Positions 18,620 to 31,290 of a stretch of 36,405 bases of DNA are shown here, piece by piece (within the stretch, counting starts at the first letter, position 1; each line of letters begins with the position of its first letter). The notes under the pieces were generated by a model. The model ran no database searches and was not told the origin of the DNA. It was given only the letters and a program-made list of their open reading frames with translations. Source of the DNA: Marinobacter sp. (lineage in GTDB: Bacteria > Pseudomonadota > Gammaproteobacteria > Pseudomonadales > Oleiphilaceae); assembly GCA_022014155.1 (NCBI GenBank), contig JAKLLS010000023.1, positions 1 through 36,405 of the forward strand. The letters run 5' to 3'. The translations under genes and the position numbers were made by a program.

Positions 18620-19570
18620 TCACCCTGGCAGAAAATCGATTGGAAATTTCACCTTTCGGGCCGCGACATTGTCGGCCCCGAAGTTGAACAGCTGCACCCG
18701 CGTGGCTATGCGACGTTCAAGTTCCGGGTTATCCAGCTCGGAACTGACCACTTCGCAACGGGAAACCGAGCCATCCGGCTCAATCACCAGTTCCAGCAAC
18801 ACCTTGCCCTCAAGAGTAGGGTCCTGCCTCAGTTCTCGACGGTACAGGGAATAAAGCGCGGTTTTCTGGGCATCAAACACTTTTCGGATATTGCTCATCC
18901 CTCGTTCCGCCGGCCCCGGATCGGGTTTGCCGACCGCTTCCGGTGCAAGCTCACGGGCCGCCGTCACCTCGCGTACCTGGTGGCCTTCAACATTAACCTG
19001 CCTTTTCGGACCACGCTCGCTCGTAACCCCGCCACTGCCTTGCAGGATCGCAGCAGAATCCTCAATCCCGGATTGTCGCTCCGCAACGCTGTCGGAGACA
19101 TTGGCAATCAACCGCCGGTCCCGTACCGGGTCGTCTGACCGGAGTGCCGTCAACTGGCCTTTCATGGCCAGCAACCCGGATCGGGACGCCTTTTCCCTGG
19201 CCTTTTCCCTGGCCTGGTCCACGGTTTGTTGGGCGGGTTCCGGCATTGGATCTGGCGCAGACTGCTGGTGGACCGGTTCCTGTGGTTCCGGTGCGGGGGC
19301 GTCGGCCATAGAGTCCTGTTCAGTTTCAGATATCGGATCCGGGACGATGACGGGCTTCGGGGGCTTCCGCTGCTCAATCAGTTTTGCCAGCCGCGGGGGC
19401 ACATCCACGTTGTCACTGTGCTCTGGCTCCGGCAAAGCCAGACCAGGAATCCAGATCGCCGGCGGAAGAAACAGTGCAACGGTGCATAGCAGAATCAAAC
19501 CGAAGCGACCGTCTTCCCCCCTTGCAGGCGACCACGGCAACCCCGTCCGGTAGCCTGAAGGTTCAGCCAT
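18620..19570 (-). CDS. TonB-like energy transducer with AgmX/PglI-type C-terminal domain
   Basis: A 316-residue protein. A short cytoplasmic N-terminus leads to one membrane segment (about 23-44), a long Pro/Glu/Gln-rich periplasmic region (about 46-140), and a compact C-terminal domain (about 222-316). The latter has VLLELVIEPDGSVSRCEVVSSELDNPELERRIA, the pattern of TonB/AgmX_PglI C-termini. It is probably the force-transmitting subunit of the ExbB/ExbD complex encoded just upstream. Start ATG 19570 has GGGAGG with 6-base spacing and overlaps the preceding exbD gene by 8 bases; longer in-frame starts read through exbD and are discarded. It is the last gene of the nine-gene operon. The outer-membrane target is unknown. 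Confidence 0.85.
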   Translation of the reverse strand: MAEPSGYRTGLPWSPARGEDGRFGLILLCTVALFLPPAIWIPGLALPEPEHSDNVDVPPRLAKLIEQRKPPKPVIVPDPISETEQDSMADAPAPEPQEPVHQQSAPDPMPEPAQQTVDQAREKAREKASRSGLLAMKGQLTALRSDDPVRDRRLIANVSDSVAERQSGIEDSAAILQGSGGVTSERGPKRQVNVEGHQVREVTAARELAPEAVGKPDPGPAERGMSNIRKVFDAQKTALYSLYRRELRQDPTLEGKVLLELVIEPDGSVSRCEVVSSELDNPELERRIATRVQLFNFGADNVAARKVKFPIDFLPG

Positions 19571-20057
19571 TACGAACCTCCCCAATGGACTCAACCGCAA
19601 GCCTGACCCGGCGGTACTGCTGGTCAACGCAGGTCTGCATGATCTTACGCAGTAACCGATAACTGACGTCGCGGCCGGCCATGATGGTGACTTCGAAGCC
19701 TTCCTCGGGAACAGCCCCCCGACGCTCGCTGCGCCAGGCCAACTCATCAGCCAGCCCCGACACCGTGGCGTCTTCTGCCGCAATACCGTCCAGGCGGGCG
19801 ACCTCCCGGCCCTGGACCAATACGGACTGACCGCTGATCTGGACCGTGAGGGTTTCTTCTGCTTCCTGCTGTGCAGAAGAAAGCGGCAGTGGCACGTCAG
19901 CGGTGTTCTGCATCACTTTTACATCAGAGGAATTAACCATCAGGAAAAACACCAGGATGGTAAAGATATCCATCAACGACACCAGGTTCAGCCCTCCGGC
20001 GCGATGCATTCGCCGGTAATGCCGCTGCATGCGGCGGGCTCGACGGGAGGTTTTCAT
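19563..20057 (-). CDS. ExbD/TolR-family protein (second copy, with the conserved Asp)
   Basis: A 164-residue single-span membrane protein. A basic N-terminus precedes the membrane segment LVSLMDIFTILVFFLMV, which holds Asp30 at the position of the proton-carrying Asp of ExbD/TolR/MotB-type stators. The periplasmic domain follows (about 45-164). The ATG overlaps the stop of the upstream exbD by four bases (ATGA), so the two ExbD proteins are translationally coupled. It is expected to assemble with the neighbouring ExbB-like channel and convert proton-motive force into movement of the TonB-like subunit. It differs strongly from the first ExbD, suggesting a hetero-dimer. Confidence 0.9.
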   Translation of the reverse strand: MKTSRRARRMQRHYRRMHRAGGLNLVSLMDIFTILVFFLMVNSSDVKVMQNTADVPLPLSSAQQEAEETLTVQISGQSVLVQGREVARLDGIAAEDATVSGLADELAWRSERRGAVPEEGFEVTIMAGRDVSYRLLRKIMQTCVDQQYRRVRLAVESIGEVRNG

Positions 20058-20542
20058 GTGCCCTCCACCGCGTCCGCCAGGGCCACATCGGGAAACAGTT
20101 CCGCTTCTACCTTACTGGCAACAACAACCGCCGGATAAGAACGCACGGTATCCATCGCGGTTACCAGGGTCTGGTAGTCAATCTCCGGCCCGACTTCGAG
20201 CACCACATCTGTCTTGTCCGGCACTCGGGCCTTGATACGTTTAAGGGTTTCAAGCAAGCCGGCAAAGTCCTGCTCGCCTTCCAGCAACGGTAAGGTGCGA
20301 ATAACGCCACGCTCACTGTCGGAGACCTCGATGCCCTCCGGGATAATGGTTACCACCAGCCGCAACTGGTCGGCGGATGGCACGTCACCGGATTCCATAC
20401 CCGGGAAATGCAGCTCAATGGTCCGGATCTGACTGAACACCATGCCCAGCAACAAGACCGGCACCAGCACAATCATCAGGTTGAGAAAGGCGGTAATGTC
20501 CAGTTCCGGGCTACTCGCGGCCCGGCGATGTCTGCGTCTCAT
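20054..20542 (-). CDS. ExbD/TolR-family protein (first copy, Asn in place of the usual Asp)
   Basis: A 162-residue protein: a short Arg-rich cytoplasmic start, the segment ELDITAFLNLMIVLVPVLL (13-31), then a periplasmic ExbD-type domain. At the position normally occupied by the essential membrane Asp it has Asn21; an Asp15 lies six residues earlier, before the membrane. If Asp15 cannot substitute, this subunit would be non-protonating and the second ExbD would supply the proton site. It begins 15 bp after the ExbB-like gene. The ExbD assignment rests on topology, length, context and the VVLEVGPEIDYQTLVTAMD-type C-terminal pattern. Confidence 0.88.
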   Translation of the reverse strand: MRRRHRRAASSPELDITAFLNLMIVLVPVLLLGMVFSQIRTIELHFPGMESGDVPSADQLRLVVTIIPEGIEVSDSERGVIRTLPLLEGEQDFAGLLETLKRIKARVPDKTDVVLEVGPEIDYQTLVTAMDTVRSYPAVVVASKVEAELFPDVALADAVEGT

Positions 20543-20557
20543 ACTGCGAATCCCGGC

Positions 20558-21205
20558 TCAGGCGGCGGACTGACCGGCGCCCTGATCTGAAATGATGTTG
20601 AGTAACTTCACGCCCGCCATCTCGAAACTGTCGACGATTTCGTTGGTCCGGGTCTGCAACAGCGCATGAAACATGAGCAGGGGGATGGCCGACATCAGGC
20701 CGAAGGCGGTGGTATTCATGGCCACAGAGATACTTTCAGACAACAGTGTCGCCTTCTGGGCCGGATCCGCGGCGGCAACGGCGGTGAAAGCGGAAATCAA
20801 ACCAATGATGGTTCCGAGCAGGCCCATCAGAGTGGCGATATTGGCTAACGTCGCCAGGTACTGGGTACGTTTCTCCAGTCTCGGAAGCACCTCCATCAAG
20901 CCCTCTTCCATGGCGTATTCGATCTCTTCCCGCCGATGGTTGTTGAGCAGCCGCCCTATTCCCGCCCCCATGATGGACGCAATAGCGCTGTCGGAACTGT
21001 TGGCGGCTTTCATGGCTCGTTGATAATCCCGTTTCTGCAGTAACGGCAATATCCCTCGCTCAAACGCCAGCCGATTACGACGGCGCACGGCCCCCAGGTA
21101 GACAAAACGTTCCAGGGTAATCGCCAGACCTATCGCCAGTACCATGGCGATGGGATACATAAACGGACCACCTTCCTGAAAGAATCGAATGACGGTTTCC
21201 AGCAT
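20558..21205 (-). CDS. MotA/TolQ/ExbB proton channel family protein
   Basis: A 215-residue inner-membrane protein with three membrane segments (about 14-37, 119-143 and 161-182) and a cytoplasmic loop between the first two. Family motifs include the GLLGTIIGLISAF region in segment 2 and ISVAMNTTAFGL at the start of segment 3. It would form the pentameric channel around the ExbD pair. It sits directly upstream of two exbD genes and one tonB-like gene and downstream of the exported TPR genes. This is not the classic exbB-exbD-tonB iron-uptake order; it is closer to the Agl/AglR-type loci of Myxococcus and many marine gammaproteobacteria. Confidence 0.92.
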   Translation of the reverse strand: MLETVIRFFQEGGPFMYPIAMVLAIGLAITLERFVYLGAVRRRNRLAFERGILPLLQKRDYQRAMKAANSSDSAIASIMGAGIGRLLNNHRREEIEYAMEEGLMEVLPRLEKRTQYLATLANIATLMGLLGTIIGLISAFTAVAAADPAQKATLLSESISVAMNTTAFGLMSAIPLLMFHALLQTRTNEIVDSFEMAGVKLLNIISDQGAGQSAA

Positions 21206-21221
21206 GATCAGACTCCTGCAG

Positions 21222-21563
21222 TTACTGCACAGACAGGTAAGAATCCGGTGACGGATTCAGGGTTTCACGAAATATCCGATGGCGCTCAAGCGCCAAGGGA
21301 TCCAGGGGTTCAAGCAAATCGGGCGCGCGGTCTTCCAGCCTCGCGCGAGGCCGGCGTGGCAGGGTCGGTGGCTGCCACGGCAAGATGTAAAGCACCCCGG
21401 GGTCATCATCAACCGAAGGGGCCGAGATGCCTTCCACACTCAAGACCATGGAAGAAGAGCTCCCTGAAGCGTTTCCGGGGTGTTCATCTGCCCCGGCATG
21501 TCCTCCGGCCACAGCGACAATGACCAGTCCTCCCAACGTAACCAATGAGATACGGCTGAACAT
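21222..21563 (-). CDS. Small exported protein of unknown function in the Ton-like operon
   Basis: 113 residues with a clear signal peptide (probable cleavage near residue 25, GHAGA/DE). The mature part is short and rich in Pro, Arg and Leu, with ILPWQPPTLPRRPRARLED and a C-terminal helix with ALERHRIFRETL. No known domain is recognised. Its ATG follows the TAA of the upstream lipoprotein gene with no gap (TAAATG), and the ExbB-like gene starts 16 bp after it, so it is firmly part of the operon. It could be a small periplasmic adaptor; this is inference from position. Confidence 0.75.
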   Translation of the reverse strand: MFSRISLVTLGGLVIVAVAGGHAGADEHPGNASGSSSSMVLSVEGISAPSVDDDPGVLYILPWQPPTLPRRPRARLEDRAPDLLEPLDPLALERHRIFRETLNPSPDSYLSVQ

Positions 21564-21947
21564 TTATTGCAGCCTCCGTTCCAGGTCCGCCATCCATCCG
21601 ATCACTTGTTTGTCCTCGCTATCGGCAAGGTCCCGATACCGGCGGTAGTGCACCAGGGCGGATTTCAGATCTAACAGGTAGAGCTCGGAAATAACGGCGA
21701 GGTTGTAATGCAGTTCGGGTGTCTCCGGGGACGATTCAATACCGGAGCGCAGCAATCCCGCGGCTTCCCGGAACCTTCCCTGCTCTTTCAGGGATAGCGC
21801 GCGATTGTTAATCGCCACCACGTCCTGAATGGTGACGGACTCTATACTGGCTTGCTCGCGGCCCCGGTCAGGGGCCTGAAAACCGGCGCAACCGGCCAGA
21901 CTGGCCATGAGAACCAGCATTACCAGCACTCGGTATTCAGGCATCAT
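21564..21947 (-). CDS. TPR lipoprotein of the Ton-like operon
   Basis: About 127 residues. The N-terminus is a lipoprotein signal with lipobox LAGC (Cys at residue 20 from ATG 21947). The mature part contains one to two TPR-like units (IQDVVAINNRALSLKEQG, AAGLLRSGIESSPETPELHYNLA and ALVHYRRYRDLADS). After the Cys the sequence begins AGF, not Asp, so outer-membrane sorting is plausible. Start choice is open: AGGAGG (21962-21957) serves a GTG at 21950 or the ATG one codon later. It overlaps the end of the upstream 924-residue TPR gene. It may anchor the periplasmic TPR partners to the outer membrane. Confidence 0.82.
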   Translation of the reverse strand: MMPEYRVLVMLVLMASLAGCAGFQAPDRGREQASIESVTIQDVVAINNRALSLKEQGRFREAAGLLRSGIESSPETPELHYNLAVISELYLLDLKSALVHYRRYRDLADSEDKQVIGWMADLERRLQ

Positions 21948-24711
21948 CACTGGGTTCCTCCTTCCATGTCATCCAACGCACATCCCGGGCGTAGCGCCCT
22001 GGGAAAAGTTCAGCGAGAACCTCCAGGCTCTTCCCAACCCATTCGGTGTACTCACCCTCCGCCAGCAGTTGATGGTTCCGTGCATGAAGCTGGATGGCTT
22101 TCTCTTCGAAGGGATAAGCCTCCTCCTCAAGGAGCATTTCGTACTGTGCACGCTCGAGATCGTTCAGTTCATCCGGCACCTCGGACGCCATCAGGTCTGT
22201 TGCCAGAACCCGATAAAGCTCCGCCCGCCGGTACAATGCTTCGGACTGCAAGGATTGCGGACCCAGCTGGACCACCTCCGCAAACCTCTGCCTGGCCTGC
22301 TCAAGTGCTGCCTGCTTGCGTGCCAGGGACTCTGCCAGGGGATGTTGAAGCGCTATCGCTTCAAATTTTCTGGCACTCATGCGGCCCAAAGCCATAGCTG
22401 CACGGGCGGACCATGTCAGGGTGTCAGACGAATGCCATTGACTGGCGAGTTCGGTGCTCACCAGCTGTTCCCGATAGTGATCAGGGGACACCTCCGATTC
22501 CACAAGTCGTTGACGCATGGTTTGGGCCTGGATGTGCTCAGCGGCGCTGACGGGTTCATGGGGTTCGGCAAGGAATTGCTGGTAAATACCATTACGACGA
22601 TCAAGGGCACCGCCCTGATGAAACAGTTCCGCGGCGCGCAGTTTTCGAGGCCAGTGAGGCTCTGTTCTTGCGGAGTTCCCGATCAGTTCCGACGCGGCCC
22701 GAACAGGATGATCAGAACGGGTGTAGGCCAGAACCAGTTTGTCACTGATGTCAGCCGTCAGGTTGTGTTCAGGATAATCAGAGCGGAATCGGTTCAATTC
22801 ACCAATGGCCGCCAGCCAACGCTCTGCCAGCAGCAGACTGTTCGCGGCATCGTAGCGCCCTTTGATGGCAATCTCCGAACCAGGAAGCACCGAGCCCACC
22901 CGCTGAAAATGCCCCACGGCGACATGGGTGTCGCCCGACTGCTGAGCGACCTCCCCTTGACGGTACACCGCACGGGCCAGTTGCAGCCGGACCTCATGGG
23001 CTTCGGCTGCGTCAACCCCGGCAAGACTGTGCTCGCTTATCAGCGCAGCTGCGTTGCGCCACGCATGCTCAGCCAGGACATGGTCACCGGTTGCCGTATG
23101 AACCTCACCAAGCGCCAGCCAGGCACTGTAGCGCTCATCCGGACTTGCGGAAGTATGGGCATGAACACGCTCGGCAAATCGACGAGCCTCTGCATAGTCC
23201 TGATGCTCCAACCAGCGATTGGCGATATCGGCATCCAGCCCGGATTGGCGGGGGGCGTCCGGAAAACGCTTGGCAAACCGGTCTGCTTCCGATGACAGAT
23301 CCTGTAAACGGGTTTCGAACGCTATTCGGTTGTCCAGACCATTCCGGTGAATGCTGATTGCGGCCCATGCCGCATCGACTGCATCGCCGTAACCCTGGGT
23401 GCGGTAGGCTGCCTGTCGGAAGTTCTCAAGTGCAACCCGGAAATGCCCGGCCTGTAACCTGGCGTCGCCTGCCAATCTCAGAATTTCGCCCGGTTCGCGG
23501 GTTCGCTTGCTGAGCCCCTCGTAAAAAGCGGCGGCTCTGGAGAACCATTCACCGGACGCTCGCTCCCCCTGATCGTAATAGTAGTCCGCCAGCTGACGAC
23601 TCAGGGTCCGCCACAGATCCTGATGCGTTCCAGCCAGCGTTTCGTACCGATGATCACTCCCATACGCAAACACATAATCGGCCCGCGCTTCGCGAACCCG
23701 GTCGCTTTTCCCGGCCAATGTCCATACGTCGATAACCTGGGCGAGAAATGCAGCCGCAGCCGGATGGTCCGGGCAGGCTTCAATGTAGGCCTGGTTCACC
23801 GAAACACTTTCTTCAAACCTGCCCGCGCTGGCGTAATGATCCGCCAGTCGATCAAACAACAGATAATCGTAGTGCTTCTCAGCGCGGCCGCCCATCCAGG
23901 CAGTCAGGGCGCCGCCCCCCCCTGAATCAGCGGCCATCAAAGCCAACACCCTCAGGGTGTCATCGACCAGTTCGACATCACTTGCGGAAACCCGCTTTAT
24001 ACTCTCAGGATCCGGCAATTGTTGATCAAGCACATGGACAAAGCTGGCAGCGGCACGAGGCCATGCATCCCTTCCCTGTTTGTACTGACTCCACCCCTGC
24101 ATATAGTGGGCTTTGAGCTTCAGGCGATTTCCACCCCTGCTGGATATCAGTCGACCGTATTCCAGTTCTGCGTCCGTGTAATTCCCACCTGAGAATGCCG
24201 CTTCTGCTATTCGGAAGCGTGCCTCGGGAACCAGGGGTGATTTTGGATATAGCCCGGTGAGTTGCCTTAACCGCTTAATAGACTGATCACTTTGGCCTAC
24301 ATAGGCGTGGGCCTTGGCCATCTGGTACAGCAGTTCATCCAGTTTTCCGTGGAAGGAGCCACTCTGGATAATCGACTCGTAGCTGCCAAGGGCTTCCCGA
24401 TATCGCCTTATCTCTTGCGTATCTTCAAAATGGACGAGGTGTCCGGACACCTGCTGAATGTTGGCAAGGCGATTCAGGGCATCAATCCGCACCTCCGGTT
24501 CCTCGGATGTGTCAAAAAGCCGCTGATATCGGCGTACTACTTCAGCCGGAGAGATCGCAGGCATCGGACGGGACTCAAACGTCATGAACACCGGGCGCAT
24601 ATCCGCGATAGTTTCACCGTCGCGACCCAGTTCAACGCGAAAAGATTCCTGACCGTAGGCCAAGGGAGCAGTGCAAGCTACCAGCAGCAGACCAATCGCC
24701 GACATTCTCAT
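21937..24711 (-). CDS. Large exported TPR-repeat protein of the Ton-like operon
   Basis: 924 residues, almost entirely helical TPR-like repeats after an N-terminal export signal. The signal may be SPase I-type (AYG/Q near residue 20) or a short lipoprotein type (LVAC at 10-13). Recognisable repeat pieces include YGRLISSRGGNRLKLKAHYM, ADHYASAGRFEESVSVNQAY and ALENFRQAAYRTQGYGDAV. It resembles the exported TPR proteins next to AglR/ExbB-type channels (AglT-like), a similarity judged by context and repeat type rather than a domain search. The start ATG (24711) overlaps the previous stop as TAATG and has GGGGAGG six bases away. It probably acts as a periplasmic or outer-membrane scaffold moved or gated by the ExbB/ExbD/TonB complex. 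Confidence 0.88.
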   Translation of the reverse strand: MRMSAIGLLLVACTAPLAYGQESFRVELGRDGETIADMRPVFMTFESRPMPAISPAEVVRRYQRLFDTSEEPEVRIDALNRLANIQQVSGHLVHFEDTQEIRRYREALGSYESIIQSGSFHGKLDELLYQMAKAHAYVGQSDQSIKRLRQLTGLYPKSPLVPEARFRIAEAAFSGGNYTDAELEYGRLISSRGGNRLKLKAHYMQGWSQYKQGRDAWPRAAASFVHVLDQQLPDPESIKRVSASDVELVDDTLRVLALMAADSGGGGALTAWMGGRAEKHYDYLLFDRLADHYASAGRFEESVSVNQAYIEACPDHPAAAAFLAQVIDVWTLAGKSDRVREARADYVFAYGSDHRYETLAGTHQDLWRTLSRQLADYYYDQGERASGEWFSRAAAFYEGLSKRTREPGEILRLAGDARLQAGHFRVALENFRQAAYRTQGYGDAVDAAWAAISIHRNGLDNRIAFETRLQDLSSEADRFAKRFPDAPRQSGLDADIANRWLEHQDYAEARRFAERVHAHTSASPDERYSAWLALGEVHTATGDHVLAEHAWRNAAALISEHSLAGVDAAEAHEVRLQLARAVYRQGEVAQQSGDTHVAVGHFQRVGSVLPGSEIAIKGRYDAANSLLLAERWLAAIGELNRFRSDYPEHNLTADISDKLVLAYTRSDHPVRAASELIGNSARTEPHWPRKLRAAELFHQGGALDRRNGIYQQFLAEPHEPVSAAEHIQAQTMRQRLVESEVSPDHYREQLVSTELASQWHSSDTLTWSARAAMALGRMSARKFEAIALQHPLAESLARKQAALEQARQRFAEVVQLGPQSLQSEALYRRAELYRVLATDLMASEVPDELNDLERAQYEMLLEEEAYPFEEKAIQLHARNHQLLAEGEYTEWVGKSLEVLAELFPGRYARDVRWMTWKEEPSDDA

Positions 24712-26378
24712 TACGGGCCTCCCCTTTCCAGGGATTCAAGGGCGAGGTATTCGTATAGATGAGCAATCTGCTGTTCGGTTTTGTCCAGCGCATGCGCCAT
24801 TCGATCATCGTGCTTGTTCACGAACGCCAGCGCCAGGTCATCAAGCTTGCTTTCCGCCCGCGCCCGCAGCGAAGCTGCTCGTGACCGGAGTACCTGAATC
24901 CTGGCCAGGAAGGCATCTGTCTTCTGCAGAAGATGTTCAAGTCTGGCATCCCGGTTTGCCAGTCTATCCCCCAACAACGTCAGGGATGCCTCAATATCCT
25001 GTAAGATCCTGGCAAAACGGTTGAGGGTCTCCAGGTGAACCGGACGGCCTGTTTTGTCTCTCAAGCCTTCTATCCGGCCACGAAGAATCGCCAGTCTGGC
25101 AAGAAACGATTCGCTATAACTACTTGCCAGCTTGGCTCGCGTTGCGAGCCTGTTTTTCAGCGAACTCCGGAAGACCTGCAGATTATTCGCCTTTTCTTCC
25201 AGCAGGGCCTCCACTCTCGCCAGGTCCGATACCTTGCCCACAGCATCCTGGGCCGCGGGATCCTCCATAAATCTCAACAGATAAGCCATCCGGGGTTGTG
25301 TGAGAGTGCGGCTATCCGCAAGGAACCATTGCGCCTCGAAATCCCGCGCATCCTGCACTAACGTTTTCCACGCCCCGTCCCGCTGAATCTGCGAGGCCAG
25401 ATTCCGTAACGTGACGCGCTCACCTTCATAGGACGCGTTAGCAGCAAGATACGCTTCCCCTGCCTGTCCAAGGTAACCGGACAGATCATAGCCCCGGCCC
25501 ATGCCCAACCAGGTATCCTGAACGCCGGGATAAGCGAGCGGGTATTTCTTCGCGCGATGCCAGGATTGCATTGCCGCCCGATGTTTATCCCGGGCAGTCA
25601 ACGCTAAACCGTGAAAATACAGAGCGCGCGGGGTGTGGTAGCTCTCGAGGGGAACCTGTTCAAGAAAACCGATGGCCTTCTCATACTCTTCATTCTGGTA
25701 GGACAGGTAACCAGCCCGCACCAATAGTTGGCTACGTAGATTACTGCTGCGTTCACTGATGGTGTCATGCTCGGACATTGCCAGGGCAACACGAAGGGCG
25801 ACTAATGCCCGAGCCGGATTAAGATCCCGCTTGCTGTAGTCTGCCGCCAGATTCATATAGCCAAGGGCGGCCCAGTAACCGGCCTCCATAGCTGATAAAA
25901 TCCGCCCTGCCCTGTCCCGGTGACCAGCCCGGCGCTCCAGCTCCGCCAACTCATAGAGCGCCTGCTGACGTACCTCACCGTAGCCAGCGTCGGCGGCGAT
26001 TTGGAAACGCTGTTGAGCCTCCGTTTCTTCACCTTCGTCCAACGCGATCCGGGCCAGAGCCAATGCTGCGGCCCCGCGTTGGTGTTCGCCCTCAATCAGG
26101 CGCTGCAGGAGTATTCTCGCCTCATTGGTCTGCCCCAGCGCCATCAGCGCCTGCGCCTTAAGCCAGGCCCCCGGATATCCACTCAGATTGCGGGCATAAA
26201 CCAGGGACTGCTCTGGTGATCCCGAGGCCAATGCGAACCTGGTCAGGCCTGTTGCCAGGTTTTCTTCCGTACGGGCGCTGGCCGTTCCGGACGATAGCAG
26301 CGTTATCGCAAGCAGCATCGCTACGCTGACCCGCTGAGCAAACACCCGTAAACAACGGTCTACAGAGCTGACAACCAT
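24711..26378 (-). CDS. Exported TPR and helical-bundle protein of the Ton-like operon
   Basis: About 555 residues from ATG 26378. A signal peptide ends near GTASA/R, TPR-like helices span about 40-330 (for example ALARIALDEGEETEAQQRF and AGYLSYQNEEYEKAIGFLEQ), and a long predicted helical or coiled-coil C-terminal half covers about 360-550 with many Arg/Leu heptads. ATG 26378 has GGAAG eight bases upstream; an in-frame ATG at 26393 overlaps the previous gene but has its AGGG only one base away. The final codon overlaps the ATG of the 924-residue TPR gene. Function is unknown; it is probably a periplasmic partner in the same complex. Confidence 0.85.
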   Translation of the reverse strand: MVVSSVDRCLRVFAQRVSVAMLLAITLLSSGTASARTEENLATGLTRFALASGSPEQSLVYARNLSGYPGAWLKAQALMALGQTNEARILLQRLIEGEHQRGAAALALARIALDEGEETEAQQRFQIAADAGYGEVRQQALYELAELERRAGHRDRAGRILSAMEAGYWAALGYMNLAADYSKRDLNPARALVALRVALAMSEHDTISERSSNLRSQLLVRAGYLSYQNEEYEKAIGFLEQVPLESYHTPRALYFHGLALTARDKHRAAMQSWHRAKKYPLAYPGVQDTWLGMGRGYDLSGYLGQAGEAYLAANASYEGERVTLRNLASQIQRDGAWKTLVQDARDFEAQWFLADSRTLTQPRMAYLLRFMEDPAAQDAVGKVSDLARVEALLEEKANNLQVFRSSLKNRLATRAKLASSYSESFLARLAILRGRIEGLRDKTGRPVHLETLNRFARILQDIEASLTLLGDRLANRDARLEHLLQKTDAFLARIQVLRSRAASLRARAESKLDDLALAFVNKHDDRMAHALDKTEQQIAHLYEYLALESLERGGP

Positions 26379-26383
26379 GGCCC

Positions 26384-26944
26384 TTACTTCCATTCCCTGA
26401 AAGATATCTGTGGTTCGTAATCCGGAGCCCTGGCTTCCAGGGACATCTGGATACGGAACTCCCCTGGCCGCTTGCGGAATTGATGGCTCGATTCGCGCCT
26501 GACGTAACGATTATTCGCGGCGCGGGCTGTCAACACCGCTCTAAGGACATGGTCACCATGGGGAAGGTTTCCGGTATACAGTTGCTGCACACCGCCCTGC
26601 TGGAGCGCTGCGAACTCCCTGCCAGTGTACAGGTGGGACGCAACGGGGGTGTCATCGACATATAGCTCGACGGAGTGCAGCGTCAGGGCATCTTTGCGAG
26701 CAAGTGTCAAAAATACTGTCACCTGGCTGTCGGCGGGATGGAGAATGTCTTCTTCAAGCGCGAAAACCTCACCTGCCAGGCTGGCAACGTCCGCCCTCAA
26801 CTGGCTGATATCTTCATCAAGCTCATCGGCCGCCGCAGGGGTAGAAGCAAGCAGGGTATAGCTTAAAACGACCAGAAAGATGGTGGTGAGCTCGTATCGC
26901 CTCCTGATCGGAGCCGGGCCTGTTACCTGTTCTGCCGCGAACAT
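26384..26944 (-). CDS. Exported coiled-coil protein of unknown function, first gene of the Ton-like operon
   Basis: 186 residues. A basic n-region and hydrophobic stretch end in a likely cleavage site at TPAAA/DE (39/40). A short coiled coil (about 40-65) follows, with ELDEDISQLRADVASLAGEV. The remainder is beta-rich with VTVFLTLARKDALTLHSVELYVDD and LPHGDHVLRAVLTARAA, which looks like an immunoglobulin- or PEGA-like sandwich. No catalytic motif is seen. It has AGGAA four bases before the ATG and is followed within a few bases by the TPR genes, so it is the promoter-proximal gene. It may sense or bind an envelope ligand (speculation). Confidence 0.78.
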   Translation of the reverse strand: MFAAEQVTGPAPIRRRYELTTIFLVVLSYTLLASTPAAADELDEDISQLRADVASLAGEVFALEEDILHPADSQVTVFLTLARKDALTLHSVELYVDDTPVASHLYTGREFAALQQGGVQQLYTGNLPHGDHVLRAVLTARAANNRYVRRESSHQFRKRPGEFRIQMSLEARAPDYEPQISFREWK

Positions 26945-27067: not shown

Positions 27068-27251
27068 ATTCAAAGTAGATTGGCGAATGTGACCCGTGGG
27101 AACGGTCAAAGGCAGGCTATTTCACTGAAATATCAAAAAATAATTCAAGTGGCCCCGAAATTGCTCCAGGCGACATGGCGGGGATGCCGTAATGGCAACC
27201 CCGTTGATATGCCGAGCTTTGCCGATGCTCTCAACCGCATCGGCTTTTTTT
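27068..27251 (+). ncRNA. Candidate small RNA between the Ton-like operon and the VWA gene
   Basis: The 305-bp gap 26945-27249 has no plausible gene, yet a strong plus-strand terminator lies at its right end and no plus-strand gene is upstream of it. The proposed RNA of about 180 nt has a hairpin at 27090-27108 with GGGA in its loop, a hairpin at 27179-27203 (CGGGG/CCCCG around an inner GCC/GGC), and the terminator hairpin. The GGGA loop could bind a CsrA/RsmA protein. No known RNA family is recognised. Both flanking genes are on the minus strand, so this would be an independent transcript. Confidence 0.45.
27221..27251 (+). terminator. Orphan Rho-independent terminator, plus strand
   Basis: GCCGATGC (27221-27228) and GCATCGGC (27237-27244) form a perfect 8-bp stem followed by seven T (27245-27251). 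The U-tract is only on the plus strand. It overlaps the last two bases of the minus-strand VWA gene's stop codon, so it is not that gene's terminator. Confidence 0.85.
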
Positions 27252-28428
27252 ATTTGCTCAACTGCTTCATGGCCGACTCCAGACCATCAATGGTTAACGG
27301 ATACATATGATCGTTAACCAGTTGCCTGGTCATACCCAGCGAACCACCAGTTCCCCAATAGCTCTCGGGTAGCGGGTTTAGCCACACCACCTTGCGGAAA
27401 TGATCGGAGATGCGCTGAAACCAGGTGGCGCCGGCCTCCTCGTTCCAGTGCTCGATCGAACCACCAGGATGGGAGATTTCATAGGGGGCCATGGTGGCAT
27501 CCCCCACGAAGATCACTTTGTAGTCCGGGGTATACTTGTTGAGGATGTCCCAGGTGCTGGTGGTTTCGTTCATGCGACGGATATTGTTCTTCCACACGCT
27601 CTCGTACACAAAGTTATGGAAGTAGAAGTACTCCATATGCTTGAACTCCATACGCGCGGCGGAGAACAGCTCTTCGCAGACGCGCACATGGGGATCCATG
27701 GAGCCACCAACATCGAAGAAAATCAGAACCTTGACCGCGTTATGCCGCTCGGGAACCATTTTCAAGTCGAGATAACCGGCATTGCGGGCTGTGGAGCGAA
27801 TGGTATCGTCCATGTCCAGCTGGTCCGCAGCGCCCTGGCGAGCAAACTTGCGGAGCCGGCGCATCGCGACCTTGATGTTGCGGATACCCAGCGTGATGCT
27901 GTCATCCAGGTCCTTGAATTCGCGCTTTTCCCAGACCTTCACTGCCCGGCCATGACGACCGTTCTTCTGGCCAATACGGAAGCCTTCCGGGTTGTAGCCG
28001 TCGGCGCCAAATGGCGAGGTACCACCGGTACCGATCCACTTGTTGCCGCCGGCATGGCGTTCCTGCTGCTCTTCCATGCGTTTCTTGAAGGTTTCGATCA
28101 ACTCTTCAAGACCGCCAAGGGAATCGATTTTGGCCTTGTCTTCCTCACTGAGATGCTTCTCGAATTCGGCCCGCAGCCAGTCATCGGGAATCAGCATCTC
28201 CATCAGGTCCTCGAGGTTTTCGATACCCTCGAAGTAGGCTTTAAACGCACGGTCGAACTTGTCGAAGTGGCGCTCGTCCTTTACCAGGCACAACCGTGAC
28301 AGGTAATAGAACTCTTCCATATCCGCGAAGGCCAGCCGGTTTTGCAGAGCCTCCAGCAGGTCCAGGAATTCGCGCAGGCTGGCGGGCACTTTTGCCCGCC
28401 GCACTTCGAGAAAAAAATCAATCAACAT
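27250..28428 (-). CDS. VWA-domain protein, COG3825-like partner of MoxR
   Basis: 392 residues. A helical N-terminal region (1-125) is followed by a Gly-rich linker (127-155) and a C-terminal von Willebrand factor A domain. The metal site reads DVGGS (Asp239-Ser243), with Gly in place of the first Ser of the DxSxS motif, then FVGDATM further on. I believe this Gly form is usual in this family (COG3825, CoxE-related), but state it from memory. No signal peptide is present, so it should be cytoplasmic. The start follows the MoxR gene stop by 22 bp. MoxR-VWA pairs act as chaperone-like modules that mature or remodel specific protein complexes; the client is unknown here. Confidence 0.9.
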   Translation of the reverse strand: MLIDFFLEVRRAKVPASLREFLDLLEALQNRLAFADMEEFYYLSRLCLVKDERHFDKFDRAFKAYFEGIENLEDLMEMLIPDDWLRAEFEKHLSEEDKAKIDSLGGLEELIETFKKRMEEQQERHAGGNKWIGTGGTSPFGADGYNPEGFRIGQKNGRHGRAVKVWEKREFKDLDDSITLGIRNIKVAMRRLRKFARQGAADQLDMDDTIRSTARNAGYLDLKMVPERHNAVKVLIFFDVGGSMDPHVRVCEELFSAARMEFKHMEYFYFHNFVYESVWKNNIRRMNETTSTWDILNKYTPDYKVIFVGDATMAPYEISHPGGSIEHWNEEAGATWFQRISDHFRKVVWLNPLPESYWGTGGSLGMTRQLVNDHMYPLTIDGLESAMKQLSK

Positions 28429-28450
28429 AAGGTGTAGCTCTTGCTGAATG

Positions 28451-29293
28451 TCAGCTGCGACGACGAGCCATGAAGGCCAGTTTCTGCAGCAGGTGAACGT
28501 CCTGCTCGTTCTTCACCAGGGCCCCGTACAACGGCGGCAAGGCAGAGCTGGTATCCTTCTCCTGTAGCATTTTGGCAGATAATTGATCGGCCATCAGCAG
28601 CTTGAGCCAGTCGATCAACTCGGAAGTGGATGGCTTTTTCTTCAACCCGGGCACCTTGCGCACGTCAAAGAACACCTCCAGGGCATCCCGTACGATGGCC
28701 TGCTGCAGCCCGGGGAAATGCACGTCCACAATGTCTTGCATGGTGTCGTGATCCGGGAAGCTGATGTAGTGGAAGAAGCAGCGACGCAGGAAGGCATCCG
28801 GCAGTTCCTTCTCGTTGTTACTGGTGATCACGATGATCGGACGCTGTTTTGCCTTCACAAACTGCTGGGTTTCGTACACAAAGAATTCCATGCGATCGAG
28901 TTCCAACAGGAGATCGTTCGGGAACTCGATGTCAGCTTTGTCGATCTCGTCGATCAGCAGCACCACCTGCTCATCCGCCTCGAACGCTTCCCAGAGCTTG
29001 CCCTTGACGATGTAATTGCTGATGTCCTTCACCTTCTCATCCCCCAGCTGGGAATCACGGAGGCGGGACACCGCATCGTACTCATAGAGGCCTTGCTGGG
29101 CCTTGGTGGTGGACTTGATGTGCCAGGGGATCAGTCTCATGCCCAGGGCAGAGGCCATTTCTTCCGCCAGCAGGGTTTTGCCGGTCCCGGGCTCGCCTTT
29201 AATCAGCAACGGGCGTTGCAGCGAGATAGCCGCATTCACCGCCATCTGCAGGTCATCAGTAGCTACGTAATTCTCGGTACCGGTAAACTTCAT
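28451..29293 (-). CDS. MoxR-family AAA+ ATPase
   Basis: 280 residues, a compact AAA+ ATPase. Walker A GEPGTGKT is at 33-40, Walker B LLIDEID at 112-118, sensor 1 is ITSNNEKELPDAFLRR with the arginine finger region, and the lid domain follows. It is the normal length for the smaller MoxR class. It is first in a two-gene operon with the VWA gene and has its own promoter (29334-29362). It should power remodelling by the VWA partner. Confidence 0.93.
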   Translation of the reverse strand: MKFTGTENYVATDDLQMAVNAAISLQRPLLIKGEPGTGKTLLAEEMASALGMRLIPWHIKSTTKAQQGLYEYDAVSRLRDSQLGDEKVKDISNYIVKGKLWEAFEADEQVVLLIDEIDKADIEFPNDLLLELDRMEFFVYETQQFVKAKQRPIIVITSNNEKELPDAFLRRCFFHYISFPDHDTMQDIVDVHFPGLQQAIVRDALEVFFDVRKVPGLKKKPSTSELIDWLKLLMADQLSAKMLQEKDTSSALPPLYGALVKNEQDVHLLQKLAFMARRRS

Positions 29294-29387: not shown

Positions 29388-31259
29388 TCAGGGCTTCCGT
29401 TTGTCCCGGCCGCCCGGCTTGTCACCGTCGGCGGGCCTGGTTTTATGTTCTTCATCATCCGAGTCCGGAAGATCATCAAACTCGGATAGGTCGAAATCCT
29501 CCAGGCCAAATTCTTCATCGCTGTCCTCTACCTCAGCATCGGCCACCGGGATGCCCTCTTCCGGATCAGCTTCAGGCTCGGTTACAGGTTCCGCCCCCGG
29601 TTCTTGAGTGACCTTTTCTTCCTCGCCTTGTTCAGGCTCAATCACCGGCACTTCGTCATCGTTCGGGGTTTCCTGAGATTCCTGGACCGCCTTCTTCTTA
29701 CGACGAACAGCGGCGAACAGGCCACCGGCGATAAGTGCAATCAGAACGATGCCTCCCGCAGCCATGGCCCATAACGGCAGTGCCGTGTCCACTTCCTCTG
29801 GTTCTACGGAGACGGCCGAGGTTTCCTCGACGGCATTGATGTCAATCGGGCTGGTGCTGATGTTGTCTTCCGCCGGATTGGGCTGATGATCGGGTTCAGG
29901 CACACTTCCTGAATCAGAATCAGAAGCGTCCATCTGAACGGGAACGGCGGGTTCTGCGGGCTCCAGCTCTTCAGAGGGTGCGGGAGCCAATCCTTCCGGG
30001 ACAGTGAAACGGCTGGAACCAGTGAACTTGCGAGAGAACGTCTTCCCATCTGCCACCACATCAATTACATATTCCCCGGCAGACGGGAGTCGCTCTACAG
30101 CGTCCTGGTAGATGCCGTTTTCTGGCGGCTGATCCCCGGATAGCACCTTGGTTCCACTGCGACCATCCTCGGAGGTAATCGTGACTCGTACCTCCATGAC
30201 ATCAAGGAAACTCGGATCGGTCAGCCGGTCCTGAGCTTCGAAAAACGCGACCTGGAGCTGTAAAGGCTCATCCCCGGAAAAGACCGATGGCAATGGGCTT
30301 ACCACCATACGCAAATCACTGACCACAGTGACCCGGCTGCCCTCCCCCAGTTCGCCGTCCAACCGCCACTCCCCCTTTTTTGGTTCAGTCACGGTAATCA
30401 AGTCATAGCCGGATTCCCGGGCCCAACGCATGCCATCGCCCGGACGGTCTACCCTGGCCGTATTGCCATCCGGGTCCGTCAGCCTGAGCTCACGGGTGTC
30501 GCTGGTTTCGTCCTCTCCCCAGAAGATCAGTGCGGTAAACTCGCGCACCGCGCTGTCCACGCTGAAACGGTTGCCCTCAATCGGCACCTGCTCTTGCGGT
30601 ACAGCCGCGTTCAGGGCTTTCAGGAAAACCCGATTGAGGGCATCCGCGGAGGGGGCCACGCTGTAACTGCCCCCAGTTTCCTGCGCCAGAGTCTGGAGAA
30701 ATCCGACATCCGCCTCCCCGGACAAGGCAACGGTATGGAACGTGGCCCCTTTACTCACCAGTTCATCCAGTAGCGGACCGAGAATCCGTTCACGTTCGGC
30801 CTGATTCACTCGTTCATCGTCGGAAATATCGACTTTGCCATCCGTCAGCAGGATGAAATCGGTGTGGCTCAGGTCGCCAGCGGTAAAGTAGTCGTCACTC
30901 GCAACTTCAATGGCTTTACCAAGATTGGTGCGAAGGGCAACGGAATTGATCTCTGAGGAGAGGCTGATCATCTGTTCCCGCCAGCGTTCATCCACGCGGT
31001 TACGGGGCACCAGCATGTTGACGTATTGGCCGAAGGTCCAGAGACCGGCGTAGGCATTTTCGGGCAGCATTCTGGCAAGCAACCGTACGGCGGGTTGTCG
31101 GAGATTGTCAGGATCGTTGTCTTTCATGGATCCGGAAATATCCACAATGATCCGGACATCGGCCCCCTCGGGGAGCTCCGGATTGGCCGTGGTCTGCGCA
31201 CTTGCCCAGATAGGTAGGTTGACGATAACCAGAAATAGGACGCTCTGTATCCAGCGCAT
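29388..31259 (-). CDS. Exported, membrane-anchored VWA-domain protein with acidic cytoplasmic tail
   Basis: About 623 residues. A signal peptide (cleavage near ASA/Q, residue 22) precedes a VWA domain with an intact metal site DISGS (Asp41, Ser43, Ser45 counted from ATG 31262) and LLTDGKVD. Two or more beta-sandwich regions follow (about 230-430), then a Pro/Glu linker, one membrane segment (about 497-519) with RRKKK after it, and a highly acidic C-terminal tail of about 100 residues. It resembles the TIGR03503-type VWA proteins of marine gammaproteobacteria, from memory. The periplasmic domain would bind a protein ligand by a metal site. I chose ATG 31259, with GGAG five bases away, over the adjacent ATG 31262. 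It is last in the dnaX-to-VWA run; its function is not known. Confidence 0.85.
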   Translation of the reverse strand: MRWIQSVLFLVIVNLPIWASAQTTANPELPEGADVRIIVDISGSMKDNDPDNLRQPAVRLLARMLPENAYAGLWTFGQYVNMLVPRNRVDERWREQMISLSSEINSVALRTNLGKAIEVASDDYFTAGDLSHTDFILLTDGKVDISDDERVNQAERERILGPLLDELVSKGATFHTVALSGEADVGFLQTLAQETGGSYSVAPSADALNRVFLKALNAAVPQEQVPIEGNRFSVDSAVREFTALIFWGEDETSDTRELRLTDPDGNTARVDRPGDGMRWARESGYDLITVTEPKKGEWRLDGELGEGSRVTVVSDLRMVVSPLPSVFSGDEPLQLQVAFFEAQDRLTDPSFLDVMEVRVTITSEDGRSGTKVLSGDQPPENGIYQDAVERLPSAGEYVIDVVADGKTFSRKFTGSSRFTVPEGLAPAPSEELEPAEPAVPVQMDASDSDSGSVPEPDHQPNPAEDNISTSPIDINAVEETSAVSVEPEEVDTALPLWAMAAGGIVLIALIAGGLFAAVRRKKKAVQESQETPNDDEVPVIEPEQGEEEKVTQEPGAEPVTEPEADPEEGIPVADAEVEDSDEEFGLEDFDLSEFDDLPDSDDEEHKTRPADGDKPGGRDKRKP

Positions 31260-31290
31260 CATGACTCCGCTTTATTATTGTTTTATTGGT

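What the first reader, a model, noticed from the sequence alone, without database searches (positions are those of the whole stretch)
18620..26944. Nine-gene Ton/Tol-like operon with its own exported TPR scaffold
Nine same-strand genes with gaps of 0-16 bp or overlaps encode an ExbB-like channel, two dissimilar ExbDs, a TonB-like protein with an AgmX/PglI-type C-terminus, two large exported TPR proteins, a TPR lipoprotein and two exported proteins with no recognised domain. Classic Ton loci lack the TPR set and the duplicated ExbD. The layout implies one complex spanning the inner membrane, periplasm and outer membrane, driven by proton-motive force. Related loci exist (Agl motility of Myxococcus, annotated AgmX/ExbD clusters), but the small exported proteins and the job of the machine look uncharacterised.
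Basis: partly seen in the sequence, partly recalled or inferred. Interest (0 to 1): 0.72.

Follow-up and report, generated by a model that had tools for sequence, protein, structure and literature searches.

The report
Shareable proton motor spanning bacterial envelope
This is a block of nine genes, found in the same order in many Gammaproteobacteria, that likely builds a proton-powered machine reaching from the inner to the outer membrane, akin to the Myxococcus gliding engine; what it does in these bacteria is unknown.

Summary
In detail: nine co-directional genes (26944 to 18620, minus strand), gaps -14 to +16 bp. They are not a Ton or Tol-Pal locus. They match the stand-alone 'core complex' (aglRQS + gltC, D, E, G, plus an extra gene) that Luciano et al. 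2011 reported in Gammaproteobacteria, Marinobacter included, function unknown. The kind is therefore known.

New here:
- The order N-C-D-E-F-R-Q-S-G, with both small exported proteins, recurs in distant families; strong GltD matches occur in 66 of 276 sampled genomes.
- The block is absent as a unit, flanks intact, in 4 of 25 same-genus genomes.
- The two ExbDs are split: in 112 of 117 distinct loci the first has Asn at the proton-binding Asp site and the second has Asp.
- Copies lacking the motor genes were found in 16 genomes; all 16 hold a core-type motor gene elsewhere.
- A sister operon adds outer-membrane barrels, a c-heme lipoprotein and a redoxin.

Most likely mechanism (inferred): an ExbB channel around an ExbD heterodimer drives the TonB-like rod, which acts on TPR proteins and an outer-membrane lipoprotein. 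Cargo unknown. A new member of a known kind, with features that make the heterodimer and motor-sharing questions testable.

The parts
26384..26944 (-). P0001 'N': exported 186-aa protein, long helix plus beta-sandwich; no family
24711..26393 (-). P0002, GltC-like exported TPR protein (560 aa)
   Evidence: named by position and TPR architecture after gltC of the core complex (PMC3169522)
21937..24711 (-). P0003, GltD-like exported TPR protein (924 aa)
   Evidence: orthologues at 49-87% in 20 of 24 other same-genus genomes; no lipobox by my regular expression here (Cys13 in LVAC comes close) nor in 20 of 20 window-type orthologues
21564..21950 (-). P0004, GltE-like TPR lipoprotein (128 aa, lipobox LAGC, GTG start)
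   Evidence: lipobox in 19 of 20 window-type orthologues
21222..21563 (-). P0005 'F': exported 113-aa protein with a conserved I-x-P-W motif; no family
   Evidence: profile match in 40 of 40 class-level loci
20558..21205 (-). P0006, AglR/ExbB-type proton channel subunit
   Evidence: MotA_ExbB 102 bits; Thr132 and Thr166 conserved in 132 and 131 of 133 (rest gaps)
20054..20542 (-). P0007, ExbD1 (Q position) with Asn21 at the ExbD Asp25 site
   Evidence: PF02472 44.6 bits; aligned to Asp25 of chain 7ajq_F; Asn/Asp pair in 112 of 117 distinct loci
19563..20057 (-). P0008, ExbD2 (S position) with Asp30
   Evidence: PF02472 56.3 bits; Asp in 126 of 126, 117 of 117 distinct
18620..19573 (-). P0009, GltG-like TonB-type rod: one TM helix, linker, AgmX/PglI C-terminal domain (GTG start; ATG at 19570 possible)
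   Evidence: NF033768 61 bits, cut-off 40; GltG model NF033760 49.9 bits, partial, cut-off 650

Best explanation
The nine genes are one conserved block that likely encodes a stand-alone Agl/Glt-type envelope motor, in which proton flow is predicted to turn or tug a TonB-like rod that would act on TPR proteins and a lipoprotein at the outer membrane. Shown: gene content, order, absence as a block, Asn/Asp split of the two ExbDs, and motorless copies only in genomes that hold another core-type motor gene. Inferred: five P0006 subunits surround one P0007 and one P0008, with only P0008 carrying the proton; P0009 transmits force through the periplasm to the P0002/P0003 TPR array, held at the outer membrane by lipoprotein P0004; P0001 works as a part of P0002; P0005 is a short linker or plug peptide. 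By analogy with Agl-Glt and Agl-Nfs, the output would be movement or placement of material along or at the cell surface (adhesive polymer or outer-membrane patches), not nutrient import.
For: Domain calls. Same nine-gene order in distant families: 104 of 144 distinct loci complete; the others end at a contig edge, are fused or motorless, or had a gene below threshold. Empty sites with intact flanks in 4 of 4 same-genus genomes lacking the operon. One-ORF fusions: N with C in 4 of 20 window-type loci and in L157; C with D in L066, L101, L106, L107, L116 and L207; D with E in L111, L123, L197 and L211. Asn/Asp pair in 112 of 117 distinct loci, against Asp in 28 of 29 non-core ExbD loci from 9 genomes, the one Asn being again one member of an ExbD pair. 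Motorless copies in 16 genomes, all with a core-type AglR (best match 59-67% to P0006) elsewhere; the 7 genomes with only a window-type copy all keep R, Q and S (28, 34). In M. xanthus, one AglRQS motor serves both Glt and Nfs through AglR-GltG/NfsG (PMC3858216, passages).
Against: No M. xanthus Glt sequence could be reached, so homology to GltC/D/E rests on architecture and on Luciano 2011. NCBIfam GltG and GltE models are hit only partially and far below cut-off (14, 37). In M. xanthus both AglQ and AglS are said to carry the Asp (PMC9389320), and 4 of 117 distinct loci here are Asp/Asp (81, 82, 104). A different two-ExbD system also shows Asp/Asn (24, 100), so the split is not a mark of this family alone. 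The window operon has no outer-membrane barrel, so a link across the outer membrane is not shown. I found no phenotype, transcript or interaction data for any gammaproteobacterial copy (searches listed under Tried and rejected).
Confidence: 0.72

Rival explanations
1. A specialised Ton system: the motor and TonB-like rod energise one or more TonB-dependent receptors, with TPR proteins as accessory factors.
For: ExbB/ExbD families; TonB_C at 23.3 bits, just under the 24.6 cut-off, and TIGR01352 at 25.0 of 27.1.
Against: AgmX/PglI C-terminus scores above cut-off, TonB families do not; TM His in 6 of 139; no receptor among the 10 flanking window proteins scanned; of 12 neighbour groups recurring in 4 or more of 57 loci, 9 were scanned with Pfam: 7 matched other families, 2 matched none.
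Confidence: 0.08
2. A Tol-Pal analogue: it stabilises or constricts the outer membrane, the TPR proteins standing in for CpoB and a propeller lipoprotein of the sister operon for TolB.
For: P0003 is hit by the YbgF/CpoB and BamD models, below cut-off (56 of 90, 60 of 81 bits); the sister-operon lipoprotein hits PD40 (21.7 of 20.9) and, very weakly, TolB (15 of 343).
Against: TolQ 66 of 221 bits, TolR 29 of 127; no Pal or TolB among the nine; the block is dispensable within the genus (4 of 25 lack it).
Confidence: 0.12
3. It is a true surface motility engine (gliding or sliding) in Marinobacter.
For: Homology class of the motor and rod.
Against: No Group A gliding gene was recognised in the operon; [quoted passage not shown]
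Confidence: 0.06

Closest known systems
'Core complex' (aglR, Q, S + gltC, D, E, G) of Gammaproteobacteria, Luciano et al. 2011 (PMC3169522)
   Same: Single-operon set of one ExbB, two ExbDs, TonB-like rod and TPR proteins; reported in Gammaproteobacteria, with duplicates in two Marinobacter; function unknown.
   Different: That paper counts seven genes plus one additional gene; here two further exported proteins (N and F) recur. Its text confines gltA/gltB to Myxococcales and Bdellovibrionales; the sister operon here carries two outer-membrane barrels near gltC (homology to GltA/GltB not tested). The ExbD Asn/Asp split and motorless copies do not appear in the sections and passages I read.
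Agl-Glt gliding machine and Agl-Nfs spore-coat machine of Myxococcus xanthus
   Same: Motor, rod and TPR part types; one motor serving two rod complexes (PMC3858216).
   Different: Genes in one operon instead of three clusters; no FHA domain on the rod and no Group A part recognised; both M. xanthus ExbDs are said to keep the Asp (PMC9389320).
vWA force transducers with TPR, TolQ-like and paired TolR-like genes (PMC12204202, passages)
   Same: TPR gene plus one TolQ-like and two different TolR-like genes.
   Different: There the rod ends in a vWA domain and has the SHLS motif; here an AgmX/PglI C-terminus and almost no TM His.
Ton (ExbB-ExbD-TonB) and Tol-Pal
   Same: 5:2-type motor families and periplasmic rod.
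   Different: Equivalog cut-offs not met; no receptor, TolB or Pal among the nine; two ExbDs.

Membership tests
Gammaproteobacterial Agl/Glt core complex | One ExbB-type, two ExbD-type, a TonB/GltG-type and TPR proteins clustered in one genomic region | tested here: met
Gammaproteobacterial Agl/Glt core complex | Rod with AgmX/PglI C-terminal domain | tested here: met
   NF033768 61 bits, cut-off 40; full GltG model only 49.9 of 650
Gammaproteobacterial Agl/Glt core complex | Phylogenetic grouping with M. xanthus GltC/D/E/G and AglRQS | not testable with these tools
Gammaproteobacterial Agl/Glt core complex | One additional gene without homologue in Myxococcales | tested here: inconclusive
   two candidates (P0001, P0005) recur here; the paper's Figure S1 is not held
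M. xanthus gliding machine | Group A genes gltA, B, F, H, I, J, K with the core | tested here: inconclusive
   none recognised among the nine in Pfam or NCBIfam; GltJ model 26.7 of 450; models for the other Group A genes may not exist in these libraries
Ton system | SHLS/His motor-binding motif in the rod TM helix (definition from PMC12204202) | tested here: not met
   P0009 TM segment has no His; His in 6 of 139
Ton system | TonB, ExbB and ExbD family cut-offs | tested here: not met
   TIGR01352 25.0 of 27.1, exbB 39 of 206, ExbD_2 15.6 of 123
Tol-Pal | TolQ/TolR cut-offs and linked tolB, pal | tested here: not met
   tolQ 66 of 221, tolR 29 of 127; no TolB or Pal among the nine
Known or candidate defence systems (e.g. 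Zorya-type motors) | PADLOC model match | tested here: not met
   0 families at E 0.001 for 9 of 9 proteins

The most novel reading that the evidence does not exclude
Gammaproteobacterial core motors run on an obligate ExbD heterodimer with a single working proton site: ExbD1 is locked by Asn in a protonated-like state and only ExbD2 cycles, giving a half-site 5:2 motor. This motor is a shared power unit that docks several paralogous rod-and-scaffold complexes in the same cell, so that rods whose own motor genes were deleted still run.
Probability: 0.35. Interest if true: 0.78.

Novelty: new member of a known kind. Interest (0 to 1): 0.55.

Why it matters
A machine predicted to span the envelope, with strong GltD matches in about a quarter of the gammaproteobacterial genomes sampled (66 of 276), has no known job. 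A 2022 review (PMC9389320) states that it is not known whether the two ExbD-like subunits of this motor class form homo- or heterodimers; the conserved Asn/Asp split makes that testable with one or two point mutants. The natural motorless copies make motor sharing, known from Myxococcus gliding and sporulation, testable in other bacteria.

Tried and rejected
MoxR-VWA link (left open, not counted as a part). A MoxR ATPase and a CoxE-like VWA protein lie just upstream in 20 of 20 window-type loci. Against a part: the 4 same-genus genomes without the operon retain them next to the downstream flank, the VWA gene is present in 10 of 10 genomes tested (those 4 and 6 of other families), with MoxR beside it, whether or not an operon is near, and 0 of 40 class-level loci show the pair. 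For a link: four loci whose records are not named Marinobacter (L184, L186, L191, L200; of 28 such loci) also have VWA, or MoxR and VWA, directly upstream of N, and in G030 the pair lies about 2 kb before the sister operon. The neighbourhood is thus older than the genus.

Results against the reading: 4 Asp/Asp loci; one locus (L170, Marinobacter similis) with R and Q split over frames; L133 looks motorless but has only 2,971 bp to the contig end, so it was not counted; the GltD tree is FastTree with 15 open branches and a long-branch warning, and loci cut by a contig end were scored as motor-bearing on it.

Full report
Observation. Nine minus-strand genes fill 26944-18620 with gaps of -14 to +16 bp. 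They encode two exported proteins with no family (P0001, P0005), two exported TPR proteins (P0002, P0003), a small TPR lipoprotein (P0004), an ExbB (P0006), two ExbDs (P0007, P0008) and a TonB-like protein with an AgmX/PglI C-terminal domain (P0009). The window lies in a draft genome of 249 contigs, 82% complete. Its named relatives are Marinobacter.

The published frame. Luciano et al. 2011 (PMC3169522; sections 6 and 7 read in full, other passages) split the Myxococcus gliding genes into a Group A confined to Myxococcales and Bdellovibrionales and a Group B (aglR, Q, S, gltC, D, E, G). [quoted passage not shown] Gammaproteobacteria have it, two Marinobacter with duplicates, function unknown. 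The window operon fits this description.

A nine-gene unit. Window-type GltD is present in 21 of 25 same-genus genomes, own genome included. The 20 other loci show the same genes in the same order, except that two lack R, Q and S. In the 4 genomes without it, the upstream u624-MoxR-VWA genes lie next to the downstream flank: VWA is followed after 330 bp by MaoC and then the acyl-CoA synthetase in L085, and after 178-695 bp by the acyl-CoA synthetase in L086-L088, where MaoC was not detected. So the block is absent as a whole. A second, divergent copy with the same order lies on contig 64 of the same genome.

At class level a GltD profile found matches of at least 400 bits (counted from the listing; 91 matches, a few of them partial) in 66 of 276 genomes, in 40 family groups. 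I took 40 of those 91 with flanks, from 38 genomes in 31 family groups. Across 78 loci (20 window-type, 18 sister-type, 40 class-level) no core gene was out of order and 62 hold all nine. Of 78 named loci, 49 hold all nine; three (L188, L197, L200) were flagged out of order because of extra E or R/S matches outside the block, and S was not found in L200. Twelve loci occur in both sets; 104 of 144 distinct loci are complete.

Fusions. P0001-like and GltC-like sequences form one ORF in 4 of 20 window-type loci (L050, L053, L054, L055) and in L157. GltC and GltD domains share an ORF in 5 of 78 and 1 of 78 loci, GltD and GltE domains in L111, L123, L197 and L211. This supports contact between N, C, D and E, though fusions can also arise from errors in draft sequence.

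Split ExbDs. P0007 Asn21 aligns with Asp25 of a solved ExbD (7ajq_F; a weak hit, E 0.019, but ungapped over this stretch). Among loci where both ExbDs were read, the pair is Asn/Asp in 121 of 126, Asp/Asp in 4 (L123, L198, L203, L209) and unread in one (L170, split frame); after removal of duplicates 112, 4 and 1 of 117, window included. Control: 30 of 41 ExbD matches in 9 other genomes came with DNA; 29 of these loci are not core, and the residue is Asp in 28. The one Asn (L237) is a member of another ExbD pair. The third ExbD pair of the window's own genome (contig 165) is also Asp/Asn, while the pair at L241 is Asp/Asp. So the split is typical of the core motor but not unique to it. A review (PMC9389320, passages) says AglQ and AglS both carry the Asp and that hetero- versus homodimers are unknown. 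The ExbB threonines are kept. That P0007 and P0008 form one heterodimer is inference.

Motor sharing. Window-type copies that lack R, Q and S but keep GltG occur in L052 and L053 and in ten named loci, with 84-108 bp between the F and G matches in the four measured. Two of the ten (L155, L183) are duplicates of L053 and L052. Copies lacking R, Q, S and G, with over 7 kb of further sequence, occur in L105, L110 (both also without E), L124, L126 and L128 and L208. That makes 16 genomes; all 16 hold a core-type AglR elsewhere, best match 59-67% to P0006 (7 of 7, 9 of 9), while the next full-length ExbB/TolQ homologues are at 35% or less. The Q, S and G genes beside such an AglR were read only in G008 (L066), G022 (L065) and G302 (L113); in the other 13 genomes only the AglR match was seen. 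The seven same-genus genomes with only a window-type GltD all keep R, Q and S. On the GltD tree the state changes at least 6 times (FastTree). This matches the Myxococcus case, where one AglRQS motor drives Glt and Nfs (PMC3858216, passages).

The sister operon. In 28 of 78 loci two outer-membrane barrel genes lie just before the block, on the same strand in 22 and divergent in 6: one with an SH3 domain, the other of the TIGR04565 OMP_myx_plus family (160 bits in the own genome). A lipoprotein with PD40 (21.7 of 20.9 bits), HZS_alpha (26.0 of 26.6) and CxxCH motifs is matched in 26 of 78, before the barrels or, in the contig-64 type, after GltG. In 57 of these loci a redoxin group occurs in 24, a DUF3570 group in 23 and an ApbE group in 6 (family names from one representative each). 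In M. xanthus the barrel genes gltB and gltA are in one operon with gltC and the three proteins bind each other (PMC4488436, abstract and passages). In the genus, TIGR04565 matches above 100 bits occur in 14 of 14 genomes with the sister operon and 0 of 11 without. The window operon has no barrel. GltD lacks a lipobox in 20 of 20 window-type orthologues but has one in 13 of 18 sister-type loci, so the outer-membrane anchor of the window type is probably the lipoprotein P0004.

P0001 is predicted as a long helix plus a beta-sandwich (pLDDT 88). P0005 relatives share a short motif whose I, P and W are each kept in at least 80% of 153 aligned sequences.

Mechanism and verdict. Shown: content, order, block absence, residue split, motorless copies. 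Inferred: assembly, force transfer, heterodimer, sharing, surface transport. Cargo and phenotype remain unknown. New member of a known kind, with newly described features that make two open questions testable.

Noticed in passing
L004/L007 (own genome contig 64) and L057-L072, L095-L128: Extended sister operon: c-heme PD40/HZS_alpha-like lipoprotein, SH3 barrel, OMP_myx_plus barrel, redoxin, DUF3570, sometimes ApbE, with the nine core genes. It hints at an envelope redox module tied to the motor and at outer-membrane barrels, possibly GltA/GltB-like, in Gammaproteobacteria.
   Followed up: partly
window 27250-29293; L184, L186, L191, L200; L089: MoxR ATPase plus CoxE-like VWA gene directly upstream of the core operon also in four loci outside Marinobacter, yet retained without it elsewhere: an old neighbourhood of unclear meaning.
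   Followed up: partly
window 29388-31262: Exported VWA protein with a C-terminal TM helix and a long, variable acidic tail, upstream of MoxR; seen in 19 of 20 window-type loci and also in the four genomes without the operon.
   Followed up: partly
L005:7336-8351 and L237/L242: A different two-ExbD system also pairs an Asp ExbD with an Asn ExbD (LLPL[IV]N motif).
   Followed up: partly
L170:13666-14859: Marinobacter similis copy with AglR and ExbD1 each split over two frames: pseudogene or sequencing error.
   Followed up: no
L066, L101, L106, L107, L116, L207: GltC and GltD domains in one long ORF of about 1,400-1,600 aa.
   Followed up: partly
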